NCBI GenBank assembly: GCA_021796835.1
Contig: JAKABO010000009.1
Coordinates: forward strand, 1-64,000
Reading direction: 5' to 3'
DNA: 64,000 bases
From: Pseudomonadota bacterium
GTDB lineage: Bacteria; Pseudomonadota; Gammaproteobacteria; Burkholderiales; Ferrovaceae
In this document: positions 1,663 through 57,858 of the stretch, in pieces
How the letters are laid out: every line of letters starts with the position of its first letter
How positions within the stretch are numbered: position 1 is the first letter of the stretch
The notes under the pieces: model-generated
Told to the model about the DNA's origin: nothing
The model's database searches: none
The model's input: only the letters and a program-made list of their open reading frames with translations
Translations under genes and position numbers: made by a program

Positions 1663-1781
1663 GGGATCTTAATATGCCGGTGTTAGATTGATCCTTGAGT
1701 TCTTGAAGGTTTTTTGACGGGGTTGCGTCAGGCTGGAAAGGTCGGGTTTCGTGCAGAATCGCTCAAGGGGAATTGACACGG

Positions 1782-3677
1782 ATGGTGTGGTATCTGGAAC
1801 TGGAAGATCATGAACAGTTGGCTGACATTCTCGAAAATGAGCAACTGACGGCGCTCTTTCAACCGGTGGTCGATTTGACGACGGCTCAGATTCACGGATA
1901 CGAGGGGTTGATTCGTGGTCCCTCCAGCAGCATGCTGCATTCTCCCGAAGTCCTGTTGCGCGTTGCGACTGACTGTGGTCTGCGTGGGCAAGTGGAATGG
2001 CTGTGTCACAAAGTATTGAATCGGTCTTTTCAGCGTCTCGGACTGCCGGGAAAACTGTTCCTCAACATCAGTCCCGACGTGCTGGTCCAGCGCAGCCTCG
2101 ACAAACGGTCGGAATCCATGTGGTTGGCGGAACCGCTCGAGCAAGCCCACCAGGTCGTCCTGGAAATCACGGAAGGCGAACGGATTCTCGGTTACGGGCC
2201 GGAGTTGCTTCAGGAGGCGGTCAAACGCTGTCGTGACGAAGGCATTGGGGTGGCGATCGACGACCTTGGCGAAGGTTTCTCCAGCCTGCGACTGTGGTCG
2301 GAATTGCGTCCCGACTACGTCAAGATCGACCGCCATTTTGTTCAGAACATCGAGAACGATCCGGTCAAGGCCCAGTTTGTCCGTTCCATTGTGGAGATTG
2401 CGCGTCAGACCAAGTCCACGGTGATCGCCGAGGGCATCGAGACTGTGTCCGAACTGCTCCTGATCAAGAGTCTGGGGGTGGATCTCGGACAGGGATTCCA
2501 TTTTTCTCGTCCCCATGCCACCCCCATGACCTGTCTCACGGACGAGGCTGCGGCTTTCTTGCAGAGCCAGGCGGTTCCTTCGAAACCCATGGCCGAAGTG
2601 GTCTGGGGGCGGGATTCCCTGGCCGGGCGCAATATCATTCAGATGACGCCCTGCCTGACGCCGGCCATCAGTAATGAGGCTGCGATGGGTTGGTTCGAGG
2701 CCAATCCGGGATCGGATGTCGTGCCCGTGGTCAGGGACGATGGACTGCCGATCGGTCTGCTGGCCCGCACCGCCCTGATCGGCAGTTTTGCCCAGCCCTA
2801 CCGCCGTGAATTGTATGGGCGCAAATCCTGCACCCAGTACATGGACGACAAACCCCTGATCGTCGACAAAAGGATTTCGGTACAGAACATCAGCCAAATG
2901 CTGGGCAATGCCGAGCGCCGTCATTTTTTGCAGGAATTCATCGTCACGGACAATGGTCACTACTTTGGGCTCGCCCATGGTCAGGATGTGATCCGGGTGA
3001 TCACCGAAATGCAGATTCAGGCCGCCAAATACGCAAACCCCCTGACTCAACTGCCGGGAAACGTGCCGGTTCATGAACATCTCGACAACCTGCTGCGGTT
3101 GCGGGTCCCGTTTTATGCCTGTTACTGCGACCTGGATCATTTCAAACCCTTCAATGACGTGTATGGTTTCAGTGCCGGGGACGGGGTGATCCAGATGACG
3201 GCCAACGTCCTGGCCCAGTTTTGCGACTGTGATCTGGATTTTCTGGGGCATATCGGCGGAGATGACTTCATCATCCTGTTTCGCAGCTTCGACTGGGAGA
3301 GTCGCTGTCAACGCATTCTCGGGCGGTTCGCGGATACCGTGGTCCGGCATTTTACCGAGGAAGACCGTATCCAGGGCGGGTATTGCACCGAGAACCGCCG
3401 CTTCGAACGGGAGTTTCACCCCCTGGTCTCCCTGTCCATCGGTGCCGTGGTGGTGCCTCCAGGCCACTTTACGTCCTACATGGAAGTCTCCAAGATTGCT
3501 TCAGAAGCCAAAAAGCAGGCCAAACTGATTCAGGGAAACGCCTTGTTCGTCAATCGGCGCTATAAGACGGAAGCGCCCGGTCATGACCCGAGAAGCAACA
3601 ACCTGGAGTTTTTTTCAGGCGGCGGAGGGGATCAGGGGCGCATCGACGAGTTCCTACCGATCAAGCCCGCTGCATGA
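1782..3677 (+). CDS. EAL - CBS pair - GGDEF cyclic-di-GMP signalling protein
   Basis: A cytoplasmic protein of about 631 residues. The N-terminal EAL phosphodiesterase domain (about 20-250) keeps the catalytic signature: E41 in YEGLIRG, N95 in NISPD, E128 in EITEGE, D160/D161 in AIDDLGEGFS, K181 in VKIDRHF and E217 in VIAEGIET, so c-di-GMP hydrolysis is expected. A region with two CBS-like repeats (about 270-410) follows, then a GGDEF domain (about 420-575) with the variant GGDDF at about 492-496. No membrane helix is seen, so CBS ligand binding is the likely input. ATG 1782 is chosen because AAGGGG at 1765-1770 is well spaced; the in-frame TTG at 1773 is too close. Net activity is uncertain. 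Confidence 0.88.
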   Translation: MVWYLELEDHEQLADILENEQLTALFQPVVDLTTAQIHGYEGLIRGPSSSMLHSPEVLLRVATDCGLRGQVEWLCHKVLNRSFQRLGLPGKLFLNISPDVLVQRSLDKRSESMWLAEPLEQAHQVVLEITEGERILGYGPELLQEAVKRCRDEGIGVAIDDLGEGFSSLRLWSELRPDYVKIDRHFVQNIENDPVKAQFVRSIVEIARQTKSTVIAEGIETVSELLLIKSLGVDLGQGFHFSRPHATPMTCLTDEAAAFLQSQAVPSKPMAEVVWGRDSLAGRNIIQMTPCLTPAISNEAAMGWFEANPGSDVVPVVRDDGLPIGLLARTALIGSFAQPYRRELYGRKSCTQYMDDKPLIVDKRISVQNISQMLGNAERRHFLQEFIVTDNGHYFGLAHGQDVIRVITEMQIQAAKYANPLTQLPGNVPVHEHLDNLLRLRVPFYACYCDLDHFKPFNDVYGFSAGDGVIQMTANVLAQFCDCDLDFLGHIGGDDFIILFRSFDWESRCQRILGRFADTVVRHFTEEDRIQGGYCTENRRFEREFHPLVSLSIGAVVVPPGHFTSYMEVSKIASEAKKQAKLIQGNALFVNRRYKTEAPGHDPRSNNLEFFSGGGGDQGRIDEFLPIKPAA

Positions 3678-3696
3678 TCGGGGCCCGGAAGTACCA

Positions 3697-3724
3697 ACGC
3701 CCGACGGTTGGTATCGTCGGGCGT
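3697..3724 (+). terminator. Perfect 10-bp hairpin downstream of the EAL/GGDEF gene
   Basis: ACGCCCGACG (3697-3706) and CGTCGGGCGT (3715-3724) are perfect inverted copies around an 8-nt loop, 20 bp after the stop codon at 3677. There is no U-tract after it, so it may be a weak or factor-assisted terminator or an mRNA-stabilising 3' hairpin. It also lies downstream of the convergent small gene at 3799-3939 and could serve both. Confidence 0.45.
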
Positions 3725-3798
3725 CACGGTGGGGATCTTTCCGACCCCCGGTTCCCACGCGGTCAGGCAAGGGAGGGTTTGTGTCATTCGCCGGTGAG

Positions 3799-3939
3799 TC
3801 AATGATGGACCAGGTCGGCTTTGTCTTCTTCGATACAACTGTCCCATTCCAGAGTGTCCAGTATGGTGACCAGCACTGCGAAGCCAAAAACCGAAAGAAT
3901 TTCTACCCAAACCAGCGTCTCATGTCCGATGTATCCCAT
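3799..3939 (-). CDS. Small single-pass membrane protein, 46 residues, unknown function
   Basis: The 46-codon frame starts at ATG 3937-3939. Residues about 9-30 (LVWVEILSVFGFAVLVTILD) form one predicted membrane helix, and the C-terminal tail is acidic (EWDSCIEEDKAD). Support for expression is good: an AGGGGG ribosome site lies 5-6 nt before the ATG, and a TTGACA-N17-CATACT promoter lies at 3992-4020. A longer frame starting at 4020 would begin on the promoter's -35 box and is unlikely. No family is recognised. It is transcribed away from the Fic gene and toward the EAL/GGDEF gene. Confidence 0.55.
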   Translation of the reverse strand: MGYIGHETLVWVEILSVFGFAVLVTILDTLEWDSCIEEDKADLVHH

Positions 3940-3991
3940 GATAGCCCCCTGTTTTAAGGGTTTTTCGAGCGGACCGTTGCTCGGTATGTTC

Positions 3992-4020
3992 AGTATGCCC
4001 GAATTTTTGATATTTGTCAA
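3992..4020 (-). promoter_or_regulatory. Sigma70-type promoter of the 46-aa membrane protein
   Basis: Minus strand: a consensus -35 TTGACA (4015-4020), a 17-nt spacer and a -10 CATACT (3992-3997). The start codon is about 55 nt downstream, giving a short leader with a small CGAGC/GCTCG inverted repeat. Confidence 0.55.
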
Positions 4021-4093
4021 TAATTCTGATACCTGTGCCGCAAATCATTCGCGGTCGTCAACGGAACGGCAAATGTGCGCACAACCGGCCCGC

Positions 4094-4108
4094 TGTTCTG
4101 TCAATAAA
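4094..4108. repeat. 15-bp direct repeat, copy A (3' end of the Fic gene)
   Basis: TGTTCTGTCAATAAA occurs here and again at 5657-5671 in the same orientation. This copy covers the final codons and stop of the Fic gene, so the two copies bracket the gene almost exactly. Confidence 0.7.
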
Positions 4109-5639
4109 GTTTGTTATCTGGATCTGTTTTGTCAACAAGGCTGCGTATTTCGTGAGGGTGCAGTAATCTGTTTCGGGTTATGTCGTCGGCAAAAGCATTG
4201 CAGGCAGCCATCTGTTTCCATGTATTCCGAAATTCGGAATAGTCGAATGCCGCCGACCATGCCTGAGCGCGAGTCATTGAACGGAGAAATGGGACCGGGT
4301 CGGCATTCCTGGATAGTGCTTTGAGGGGGAGTAGATAATCCTCGCGGTATGCTGTCGGGATGAGGATGCGACAGGCAGTTGCCTGAGTCAGATAGGCATT
4401 CATGGCCAGACGGGCAGTTCGGCCATTACCATCCTCGAAGGGGTGTGCCTCGGTCACGACGAACATGGCCATCAAAGCGCGCGCAAAGGGGTCTTCCAGA
4501 AGCGCAATACGTTTGAATCCTTCACGCAGGGTGCCTTGCACCAGTTCGGGATGAACGAACAAGGTTGAGCCAGCCTGATTGAGTTTTTCTTTCCATTGTC
4601 CGGGATTTCTCTCGGGTCGACTGGACAGCACCCTATGGTTGGCGCGTTTCAGCCAATCCAGAAATTCATCCTCGTTGCCCGGAGGGGTTGATCGGAAAGG
4701 TTGCTGGGTGATGGCCTGATAAGTGCCGAGCACGTCATGCGAGTCCTCGGGACGTTTCTCGATCATCCTGCCTTCAAAAATGATCTCGCTGGCTTCCTCT
4801 ACAGTGAAGGTCGTGCCCTCGATGTGGTTGGAGAAATAGGACTCGAAGAATGCAAAGTTGATGCTGCTCAACCCGGGGGTTGTTGGATCGGGTACATGCG
4901 GAAACGACTGCCGAAGCGCTGCAAACAGCGTATCAAAAATAACCAGGCGATCGGGATCGTAGGGTTTTCCTGCGGCACGCGCGAGCGCATCAACGGCGCT
5001 CAAACGTCTGGCTCCGCCGGTCTGCATCAATGCCGAGACGATGCGGTTCAGGATTTTGAACTGGGCATCCAGTCCCAGGATCTCGGCCAGTTTCCGGGCG
5101 GTGTCGCGCAGGTCGTTGACCTTGTATTCGCCGCGCAGTGTGCACAGCCGACTCAGGTGGGATTCCACCCAGGCGCGCCCCATCGTCCGGCTGGCAGCAT
5201 TCCGACCGGTATAAAGATTTTCCAGAAGGCGGCGAGCTTCGGACGAGACATACAGTTTGCCGTAAGGGGTGTCGTTCAGTGCCGGTTCCAGGCCCAGGAC
5301 AGGACCGGGGCCGGGGATCGTCATCAGGGTGAGGCCGGGTAATTCAATGCGTCGTGCCCGGTTTCCCTGAACCAGAAAAACCCGCCCCTCCGGATCGGGT
5401 TTCCCCTCCTGTGCCGATCGATAGCCGAGGACCGCTCCTGGATAAAGATACTCGGCGATCTGTCGCCAGTGGGGGCGTACGATCTGTTCCAGAGGCGTTT
5501 CCAGATCGCTGGTGTAAATGCCCCGATGAATGGCGCGCAGCCGCCCGGCGCGTGCCAGTCTGGAAACGCGTTGTGCATTCGCCTGATCTTCTGCAGAACT
5601 GAAAATCAGGGTCGCAAGAGTGTCCATAGGTTTGCGCAT
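4101..5639 (-). CDS. Fic-domain AMPylase with AbiEi-like N-terminal domain
   Basis: About 512 residues. Residues 1 to about 160 resemble the AbiEi/type IV antitoxin winged-helix family ('RLARAGRLRAIHRGIYTS', then 'LGYRSA'). The C-terminal half is a Fic domain: core motif HPFEDGNGRTAR at about 399-410 with the catalytic His, and an inhibitory-helix signature SNHIEG (S/TxxxE) at about 270-275, so the enzyme is probably auto-inhibited. Fic proteins transfer AMP or another nucleotide to target proteins. ATG 5637-5639 is preferred; TTG 5652-5654 and ATG at 5625-5627 are in-frame alternatives. No separate antitoxin gene is adjacent. The target is unknown. Confidence 0.85.
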   Translation of the reverse strand: MRKPMDTLATLIFSSAEDQANAQRVSRLARAGRLRAIHRGIYTSDLETPLEQIVRPHWRQIAEYLYPGAVLGYRSAQEGKPDPEGRVFLVQGNRARRIELPGLTLMTIPGPGPVLGLEPALNDTPYGKLYVSSEARRLLENLYTGRNAASRTMGRAWVESHLSRLCTLRGEYKVNDLRDTARKLAEILGLDAQFKILNRIVSALMQTGGARRLSAVDALARAAGKPYDPDRLVIFDTLFAALRQSFPHVPDPTTPGLSSINFAFFESYFSNHIEGTTFTVEEASEIIFEGRMIEKRPEDSHDVLGTYQAITQQPFRSTPPGNEDEFLDWLKRANHRVLSSRPERNPGQWKEKLNQAGSTLFVHPELVQGTLREGFKRIALLEDPFARALMAMFVVTEAHPFEDGNGRTARLAMNAYLTQATACRILIPTAYREDYLLPLKALSRNADPVPFLRSMTRAQAWSAAFDYSEFRNTWKQMAACNAFADDITRNRLLHPHEIRSLVDKTDPDNKLY

Positions 5640-5656
5640 CAGGCAGGTTTCCAACT

Positions 5657-5671
5657 TGTTCTGTCAATAAA
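5657..5671. repeat. 15-bp direct repeat, copy B (5' side of the Fic gene)
   Basis: Identical to 4094-4108 (TGTTCTGTCAATAAA). It overlaps the last bases of the proposed -10 box and the likely transcription start of the Fic gene, so it could be an operator or a recombination or insertion scar. Confidence 0.7.
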
Positions 5672-5698
5672 TATGCTCTTGTTTGATGGGTGTGTCAA
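5670..5698 (-). promoter_or_regulatory. Sigma70-type promoter of the Fic gene
   Basis: Minus strand: -35 TTGACA (5693-5698), 17-nt spacer, -10 CATATT (5670-5675), about 31 nt before the preferred ATG. Direct-repeat copy B sits directly after it. Confidence 0.5.
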
Positions 5699-5874
5699 CG
5701 TATGAGCAAATCCTCTTGATTCCAGGCGCTTTCATCCCGCTGTTTCAGGGAAATCCGGACTGCGGGTGACCCCTCGGATACCATCCGGGGGCTTCGAGGC
5801 AGAACCGGCAGAATTTCTGGGGTATTATTGCCAGACGGGGGAAGATCATCGGGTTCAATTGCGGAGGGAAGATC

Positions 5875-6309
5875 ATGACGGGAAAAGTGAATCTCAGGGG
5901 AATGCTGGGGCTGGTGCTGGGAAGTTGGATGGTGGTGGCACAGGGGGCGGGGTTGGATCCCGAACTGGACAAGGTGGTGCAACAGGGGAAAGACCTGTTC
6001 AGTCATGCGACCTTTGACGGGAATGGCGCGGTGTGCGAATCCTGCCATCGCAATGGCGGGGTGGGACCGGGACGTCGTCCCGACGGGCAGGCCATTCCCA
6101 GTCTGACCAATGCGGCGGTCATCTTCCCCCGTTACAAGGCGAAGGCGGGGCGGGTGTTCACGTTGCAGGACCAGATCCGGGGCTGTGTGGGCATGGCGCT
6201 CGAGGGCAAGGCGCCCGCCTATGGCAGCGATGAGTTGACGGCCCTGACCGTGTACGTAACCAGTCTGGCGCAGGGCAAGCCTCTGGATATGGGTGGAAAA
6301 CCCCAGTGA
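5875..6309 (+). CDS. Periplasmic mono-heme c-type cytochrome
   Basis: 144 residues with an N-terminal signal peptide (about 1-25, hydrophobic LGLVLGSWMVVAQGAG). One CXXCH heme site, CESCH, lies at about 54-58; a candidate axial Met is in GCVGMALEG at about 106. The fold outline (GKDLF, CESCH, 'PSLTNAAVIFPRYKAKAG', 'YVTSLAQG') resembles the small cytochromes of the SoxX/SoxA/TsdA class I group, but no sox genes are nearby, so an electron-transfer role is all that can be claimed. GGAGGG lies well placed before the ATG. The stop overlaps the start of the OsmC gene, suggesting co-translation. Confidence 0.85.
   Translation: MTGKVNLRGMLGLVLGSWMVVAQGAGLDPELDKVVQQGKDLFSHATFDGNGAVCESCHRNGGVGPGRRPDGQAIPSLTNAAVIFPRYKAKAGRVFTLQDQIRGCVGMALEGKAPAYGSDELTALTVYVTSLAQGKPLDMGGKPQ

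Positions 6310-57781: not shown

Positions 57782-57858
<77 letters not shown>

What the first reader, a model, noticed from the sequence alone, without database searches (positions are those of the whole stretch)
4094..5698. Fic gene bracketed exactly by a 15-bp direct repeat
TGTTCTGTCAATAAA occurs at 4094-4108, spanning the stop codon, and at 5657-5671, at the predicted transcription start. One or two chance 15-mers would be expected in 64 kb, but a pair placed precisely at both ends of one accessory gene is less likely. It could be a scar or substrate of gene-cassette-like insertion, or paired operators read by the protein's winged-helix-like N-terminus.
Basis: partly seen in the sequence, partly recalled or inferred. 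Interest (0 to 1): 0.5.

Follow-up and report, generated by a model that had tools for sequence, protein, structure and literature searches.

The report
Self-operator array of a Fic protein
The short DNA repeats at both ends of this Fic gene look like landing sites for the Fic protein's own DNA-binding head, and the unusual spacing of the three sites at the front of the gene is kept in many related genes from quite different bacteria.

Summary
The 15-mer is real: 4094-4108 and 5657-5671, the only two exact copies in the 2.15-Mb genome. As a bare 15-mer it is unremarkable; the window holds 15 same-strand 15-mer pairs, this one included. It marks something larger. Read in the gene's direction, each copy is a TTGACA-centred member of an array. 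At the 5' end, three direct repeats stand 31 and 41 bp apart, over the -35 box, the transcription-start region and codons 5-7. At the 3' end a pair stands 31 bp apart across the stop codon. A motif trained only on other loci's 5' sites picks exactly these two pairs as the best 31-bp pairs in the window. Homologues with other motifs keep the spacing: block 31-32/41-42 ranks 1 of 2116 in 19 distant loci, in 8 loci kept out of discovery and in 24 upstream clusters; control genes show nothing. The protein is a class II-type Fic protein with an AbiEi-like N-terminal head. Best reading: an autorepressor operator. The insertion-scar reading is not supported: fic-free versions of a tRNA-Pro site used in two relatives carry no repeat at the joint. 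No binding has been shown.

The parts
4101..5639 (-). fic gene: 512 aa, AbiEi-like winged-helix N-terminal domain plus class II-type Fic domain
   Evidence: Fic PF02661 E 2.5e-12; HPFEDGNGRTAR at residue 399 and SNHIEG at residue 270; start codon by conservation; N-terminal model closest to AbiEi 6y8q
5690..5704 (-). 5' site 1 (TTGACA 5693-5698); also the -35 box
   Evidence: motif rank 5 of 127,972 positions; promoter-like pair
5657..5673 (-).
   Evidence: motif rank 1; 31 bp from site 1; best 31-bp pair in the window
5618..5632 (-). 5' site 3 (TGGACA 5621-5626), inside codons 5-7, 41 bp from site 2
   Evidence: motif rank 45; spacing conserved in homologues
4127..4141 (-). 3' site A (TTGACA 4130-4135), in the Leu-Val-Asp codons before the stop
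   Evidence: motif rank 14; second-best 31-bp pair in the window, with site B
4094..4110 (-).
   Evidence: motif rank 4; 31 bp from site A
4053..4067 (-). possible 3' site C (TTGACG 4056-4061), 43 bp from B; weak in this window, clearer in several relatives
   Evidence: motif rank 730; alignment of 3' ends
4012..4026 (-). TTGACA that is the -35 box of the neighbouring small-protein gene (ORF 3799-4020), at the edge of the fic-bearing stretch; probably not part of the fic unit
   Evidence: motif rank 2; promoter-like pair; TTGACA kept at this place in fic-free G001, G005, G006

Best explanation
The repeats are operator sites for the Fic protein itself. Its N-terminal AbiEi-like winged-helix domain binds TTGACA-centred direct repeats. 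Three sites 31 and 41-42 bp apart (about 3 and 4 helical turns, so on one face of the DNA) cover the -35 box, the transcription-start region and the first codons, and binding shuts off transcription. The gene so limits its own dose of a possibly toxic AMP transferase, much as CccR and AbiEi do. In the Ferrovum/Gallionella/Oxalobacteraceae clade a second set of sites lies at the gene's 3' end across the stop codon; it most likely serves as an auxiliary operator (looping, or blocking read-through). Shown here: motif, spacing, conservation, domain make-up. Inferred: binding, repression, same-face geometry, role of the 3' set.
For: Blind scan of 2209 spacing pairs: (31,41) best in 7 close loci (z 8.6); (32,41) best in 19 distant homologues (z 6.8). 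With the block fixed at 31-32/41-42, it ranks 1 of 2116 in 8 loci not used in that scan (z about -6.8), in the 19, and in 24 cluster representatives (z -8.3); a further locus, L127, ranks 1 of 2209. Pair distances over 24 clusters peak at 31, 41, 73, 42. Controls: 80 of 151 available neighbour-gene upstreams, block rank 1494, 3 of 80 under 0.02; 34 of 34 window genes, rank 738, 4 of 34 under 0.02; against 20 of 24 for fic. A motif from 18 5' sites of six other loci finds the window's 5' and 3' pairs as the two best 31-bp pairs, minimum scores 12.4 and 9.6, next 2.7. TTGAC-N26-TTGAC occurs 3 times in the own genome, 2 of them here. N-terminal model: AbiEi 6y8q first in Foldseek (E 0.14) and VIA-align (Z 4.9, rmsd 4.0, 97 aligned); the AbiEi homologue Rv2827c (1zel) is also listed (Z 3.0, rmsd 6.6). 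AbiEi_4 is detected in 10 of 14 aligned members at E up to 0.1. Precedents: CccR, AbiEi and Rv2827c.
Against: No binding or expression data. TTGACA is also the -35 consensus, so 5' site 1 alone proves nothing. 5 of 35 loci (L061, L062, L083, L091, L092) do not show the block, among them the named gammaproteobacterial ones (Alteromonas L092, Woeseiaceae L061 and L062); L083, L091 and L061 show repeats at neighbouring spacings. In some AT-rich upstreams (L085, L086, L104, L105) the 'motif' is weak sequence. At the 3' end the blind scan does not recover a 31/42 triplet in the close set (top is 51/31) and finds nothing in the distant set. AbiEi_4 is below its Pfam cut-off here (15.1 against 25 bits), was not found at E up to 0.1 in 5 of 5 further distant homologues, and the fold match is weak in absolute terms.
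Confidence: 0.75

Rival explanations
1. The repeats are only -35 promoter hexamers (TTGACA) that recur by promoter turnover and not operator sites.
For: TTGACA is the sigma-70 -35 consensus; site 1 is the predicted fic -35 and the nearby 4012-4026 site is the predicted -35 of the next gene.
Against: 5' site 2 lies downstream of the -10, site 3 in the coding sequence, site A in the 3' codons. Distant homologues keep the spacing with other motifs (TTCGGACA, TTCAGACA, AACACGACA). Control genes show no 31/41 signal.
Confidence: 0.12
2. The 15-mer pair is a scar or recombination substrate of cassette-like insertion of the fic gene.
For: The gene looks mobile: close homologues (86-90% aa) in Ferrovum, Gallionellaceae, Oxalobacteraceae and a Glaciimonas-labelled bin. 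blastn homology between close loci does not pass about -78 in 20 of 21 pairs, so the outer 5' site is near the edge of the shared unit.
Against: The 5' sites keep their places relative to the gene in different surroundings. The fic-free tRNA-Pro flank of G003 is identical for 51 bases up to the fic joint and then has no TTGACA within 250 bases; fic-free G001 has one only about 200 bases past the tRNA, far from the joint seen in G005. The five-base core GTCAA does follow the tRNA directly in G003, G005 and G006, but also where no fic is present. Distant homologues show no 3' signal.
Confidence: 0.06
3. The sites are bound by another protein, such as a host regulator or the recombinase of a carrier element, and only travel with the gene.
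For: L050 carries a serine recombinase, two RepB/ParB-type and a DUF3987 gene near fic.
Against: In the eight annotated plasmid loci viewed no neighbour gene is common to all, though some recur in two: HipA (L084, L090), DUF6088 (L086, L089), ParA (L085, L086).
Confidence: 0.07

Closest known systems
CccR of Yersinia pseudotuberculosis (FIC plus helix-turn-helix autorepressor; PMC9755527, abstract, passages and Discussion read)
   Same: A class II Fic AMP transferase fused to a DNA-binding domain that represses its own promoter near the -35 and -10 boxes; widely spaced 10-bp boxes.
   Different: CccR has the FIC domain first and the DNA-binding domain last; its operator is one inverted repeat with a 26-bp spacer, not three direct repeats. 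Here the DNA-binding head is N-terminal and AbiEi-like.
AbiEi (S. agalactiae) and Rv2827c antitoxins of type IV toxin-antitoxin systems (PMC7319586 and PMC3985639, passages read)
   Same: N-terminal winged helix of similar predicted fold; autorepression from several sites in the own promoter.
   Different: They bind 23-bp inverted repeats and pair with a separate nucleotidyltransferase toxin gene; here the putative toxin domain is in the same chain and the sites are direct repeats at 31/41-42 bp.
SoFic/FICD-type class II Fic proteins (PDB, PADLOC and NCBIfam matches)
   Same: Fic fold (FICD Z 21.5, rmsd 2.8 over 218 residues), HPFxDGNGRTAR and the upstream inhibitory motif.
   Different: Full-length NCBIfam equivalog models not reached (18.9 against 550 bits for SoFic); different N-terminus.

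Membership tests
Fic/DOC AMP transferases | Fic domain above Pfam cut-off | tested here: met
   PF02661 47.9 bits against cut-off 24
Fic/DOC AMP transferases | Catalytic motif HPFx(D/E)GNGRxxR (recalled consensus) | tested here: met
   HPFEDGNGRTAR at residue 399; its key residues invariant in the 14-member alignment
Class II Fic | Inhibitory motif (S/T)xxxE(G/N) before the Fic core (recalled consensus) | tested here: met
   SNHIEG at residue 270; S270, N271, I273, E274, G275 invariant
Class II Fic | AMPylation activity | not testable with these tools
   needs biochemistry
AbiEi antitoxins (type IV TA) | AbiEi-type winged helix | tested here: inconclusive
   AbiEi_4 15.1 bits against cut-off 25; detected in 10 of 14 members at E up to 0.1, in 0 of 5 further homologues; 6y8q first match, Z 4.9
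AbiEi antitoxins (type IV TA) | Adjacent AbiEii nucleotidyltransferase toxin gene | tested here: not met
   Pfam scan of fic and five ORFs around it in the window shows none; one was seen beside fic in L053; flanks of most other loci were not scanned
CccR-type Fic autorepressor | Inverted-repeat operator read by a C-terminal HTH | tested here: not met
   direct repeats; the DNA-binding-like domain is N-terminal
Integron gene cassette | attC site and GTTRRRY core (recalled) after the gene | tested here: not met
   GTTGACA does not fit GTTRRRY; Rfam search of 3600-6200 gave one weak hit (SAH riboswitch, below its gathering score, inside the ORF) and none at the 3' end
Integron gene cassette | Empty site with one repeat copy | tested here: not met
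   fic-free tRNA-Pro flanks in G003 and G001 lack the repeat at the joint; no clean empty site was found for the window's own position

The most novel reading that the evidence does not exclude
The operator is read by a Fic-protein assembly that holds three DNA-binding heads on one face of the DNA, 3 and 4 turns apart. In the Ferrovum clade it bridges both ends of its own gene, closing the fic gene into a loop and so coupling autorepression, and perhaps the AMP-transfer state, to the integrity of the whole gene.
Probability: 0.2. Interest if true: 0.75.

Novelty: new variant of a known kind. Interest (0 to 1): 0.5.

Why it matters
The CccR paper (PMC9755527, Discussion) says that class II Fic proteins are 80% of all Fic proteins and that nearly nothing is known of how their activity is modulated. 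If this reading is right, a subfamily found in Alpha- and Betaproteobacteria and Bacteroidota carries its regulator in the same chain and a recognisable operator signature. That would make autorepression predictable from sequence in many genomes and give direct experiments. It also shows a regulatory spacing that is conserved while the site's letters change.

Tried and rejected
Cassette/scar: compared the fic-free neighbourhoods in G001, G003, G005, G006 and the tRNA-Pro flanks. No clean empty site was found for the window's own position: the same interval in G005 holds a YhgA-like fragment and a DUF4143 ATPase, G006 is rearranged, and no single contig of G001 or G003 was seen to span it. The tRNA-Pro flanks gave the useful comparison.

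Transposon-end reading: all sites point one way, not inverted. Repeats between the two edges of the L050 island were only of chance length.

3' RNA hairpin: an apparent stem around site C by eye was not kept by folding. Rfam found nothing at the 3' end.

A simple k-mer family test with 60 shuffles per locus (its printed heading says 200) was too blunt for the close set, where many shuffles equal the observed count, though positive for the Paraburkholderia/Caballeronia, L061, L091 and L093 loci; some start codons in it were wrong and were corrected. It pointed to the spacing test. The 3' 31/42 triplet was expected but not recovered blindly, so only the 31-bp 3' pair is claimed. A mid-gene control in the close set reached z 6.6 at (37,57), so z values within that set are inflated by kinship; the distant, held-out and cluster sets carry the weight.

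An AbiEi-like head fused to HipA (L130, Rhizobium; HipA_C) does not show the block (best rank 315 of 2209); one case only. A search with the N-terminal alignment alone found the same genomes as the full-length one.

Viral contigs and phages: no relatives. Plasmids by DNA: none; by protein: 59 records, all under 60% identity. Paper searches (listings; three papers opened in part) gave no description of AbiEi-Fic fusions with such an operator; supplements were not searched.

Dropped before counts: L110 (match only to the C-terminus; its start was recovered as L127), L097 from the held-out eight (near copy of L096), L006 and L016/L007 from the 5' tests (5' end masked or missing). Of 19 plasmid records covering 80% or more of the query, 10 were fetched; 9 were not (seven looked like near-duplicates; Hymenobacter DG25B and Rhizobium T136 were simply not fetched).

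Full report
Observation. TGTTCTGTCAATAAA is at 4094-4108 and 5657-5671 and nowhere else exactly in the 2.15-Mb genome. The gene between, on the minus strand, runs from ATG 5639 to stop 4101-4103 and gives 512 aa. The window has 15 same-strand 15-mer pairs after merging, this one included, so length alone is no evidence. The copies are AT-rich in a 61% GC window and, in gene direction, read TTTATTGACAGAACA.

Arrays. In gene direction TTGACA lies at 5693-5698 (the -35 box of a TTGACA-17-CATATT promoter-like pair), at 5662-5667 just after the -10, and as TGGACA at 5621-5626 in codons 5-7: spacing 31 and 41. At the 3' end TTGACA lies at 4130-4135 and 4099-4104 (31 bp, across the stop), with a weak TTGACG 43 bp further at 4056-4061.

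Close homologues. Six other loci carry fic at 86-90% amino-acid identity: Gallionellaceae L050, Gallionella L051, Oxalobacteraceae L052, L053, Ferrovum myxofaciens P3G L054 and a Glaciimonas-labelled bin L055. All six have two upstream TTGAC 31 bp apart, and a third, similar site 41-42 bp on in the first codons. By blastn, homology upstream of the start codon reaches 59-78 bases in 11 of 21 pairs, less in 9 (all six pairs with the window among them) and about 157 only in L052/L055. A motif built from the 18 sites of these six loci ranks the window's sites 1 (5' site 2), 4 (3' B), 5 (5' site 1), 14 (3' A), 45 (5' site 3) and 730 (3' C) among 127,972 positions; rank 2 is the -35 of the neighbouring small gene at 4012-4026. 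Among all pairs 31 bp apart in the window the 5' pair (12.4) and the 3' pair (9.6) are first and second; the next is 2.7, and the best outside the region at any of 46 distances is 7.9. In the own genome TTGAC-N26-TTGAC occurs 3 times, 2 of them here; the reversed control pattern occurs 10 times.

Distant homologues. Full-length homologues (about 34-58% identity) came from genome assemblies and plasmids. A scan of all spacing pairs from 14 to 60 bp for three similar 10-mers in -230..+45 gave (31,41) first in the 7 close loci and (32,41), (31,42), (31,41) as the top three in 19 distant loci; without the five Paraburkholderia/Caballeronia loci (31,41) is still first (z 5.7). The block 31-32/41-42 was then fixed and tested on 8 loci not used in that scan: rank 1 of 2116 blocks. 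L127, the recovered start of the dropped L110, ranks 1 of 2209. One representative per upstream cluster (24): rank 1, z -8.3, 20 of 24 with fractional rank under 0.02. Controls: neighbour genes (80 used of 151) rank 1494, 3 of 80; window genes (34 of 34) rank 738, 4 of 34. Over all 35 loci, 30 are under 0.02 and 5 are not (L061, L062, L083, L091, L092). The named gammaproteobacterial loci (Alteromonas, Woeseiaceae) are among the five. The letters change with the clade: TTCGGACA in four of the five Paraburkholderia/Caballeronia loci, TTCAGACA in the fifth (L058), AACACGACA in Variovorax L087. L060 has two complete upstream triplets (offsets from the start codon -184, -152, -111 and -67, -35, 8); L087 has -142, -101 and -67, -35, 6, with a further copy at -173. 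None of the seven loci checked has 3' copies. So extra sites are upstream in some clades and at the 3' end in the Ferrovum clade.

Limits at the 3' end. A blind scan there does not return 31/42 in the close set and finds nothing in the distant set; only the 31-bp pair is well supported. Site B is not exact in all relatives (ATGACA in L052 and L055, shifted in L054).

Protein. Fic domain, catalytic motif and class II inhibitory motif are present; the Fic part of the model matches FICD best (Z 21.5). The model of the first 200 residues (mean pLDDT 69, about 83-91 over residues 11-60) has AbiEi of S. agalactiae as first match in both programs, weak in absolute terms. PADLOC also lists SoFic and weak AbiEi matches. 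AbiEi_4 was detected in 10 of 14 aligned members but in none of five further distant homologues.

Mobility. The gene is sporadic: high-identity matches (84-86%) in 4 of 31 other genomes of the own family (G003, G016, G021, and fragments in G005), and close copies in 2 of 158 genomes of the family of L050's genome, that genome included. In G003 the fic contig carries 51 bases identical to the 3' end and downstream flank of that genome's intact tRNA-Pro locus, then fic; the intact locus continues without TTGACA for 250 bases. In G005 a fic remnant (about residues 111-197 and the 3' tail, on two contigs that overlap) lies behind tRNA-Pro, and its far flank matches fic-free G001 at 89% over 203 bases; G001 has one TTGACA about 200 bases past the tRNA, not at the joint. 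A GTCAA core directly after the tRNA in G003, G005 and G006 is present with and without fic. In G000 the same tRNA-Pro has no fic. Thus the gene enters variable sites, and the repeats belong to the gene unit and not to the target. In L050 fic stands near a serine recombinase, two RepB/ParB-type genes and a DUF3987 gene, a possible carrier.

Mechanism. By analogy with CccR, a Fic protein whose DNA-binding domain represses its own promoter through two widely spaced boxes, and with AbiEi and Rv2827c, the N-terminal head most likely binds the array and represses transcription. 31, 42 and 73 bp are close to 3, 4 and 7 turns of B-DNA, so the sites would lie on one face (inference). The 3' pair may add a second contact. 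All binding and regulation is inferred.

Novelty. Autoregulated Fic-HTH proteins are known. The three-site direct-repeat spacing, conserved across two phyla, and the placement of sites at both ends of one gene were not found in the paper searches made.

Noticed in passing
L098:9642-16563 (same region as L050): Island with large serine recombinase, two RepB/ParB-type proteins, a DUF3987 protein and a Cys-rich small protein divergent from fic; a Cys-rich gene that looks related by eye (MGNKYCAACGQSFRP...) also lies upstream of fic in L052.
   Followed up: partly
L068:5953-8150 against window 4020-5855: The interval that holds fic in the window holds a YhgA-like fragment and a DUF4143 ATPase in G005; an ATPase alike by eye is in rearranged G006, and a DUF4143 ATPase adjoins fic in Ferrovum myxofaciens P3G (L054). 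Looks like an insertion hotspot.
   Followed up: partly
window 57782-57858 and L111-L118: Several different downstream flanks of tRNA-Pro(GGG) among eight Ferrovum-genus genomes; fic sits there in opposite orientations in G003 and G005. G006 has two such loci, one 98% identical to the window, perhaps a mixed bin.
   Followed up: partly
L130:2471-4312: An AbiEi-like N-terminal head appears fused to a HipA kinase domain in Rhizobium NXC24, with a different repeated upstream motif (CGTATTTSARATACGCGA-like, by eye); the head may be shuffled among effector domains. Klebsiella 'ROK family' hits match the same head (listing only).
   Followed up: no
genomes G001-G008, query window 1773-3677: 21 to 45 matches to this EAL-GGDEF protein (domains) per genome of only 1.3-2.7 Mb (some proteins are counted twice), a rich cyclic-di-GMP repertoire for the size.
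   Followed up: no
window 3799-4020: Small conserved protein gene of unknown family (no Pfam match) whose -35 box is the second-best match to the fic motif; it might be co-regulated.
   Followed up: no
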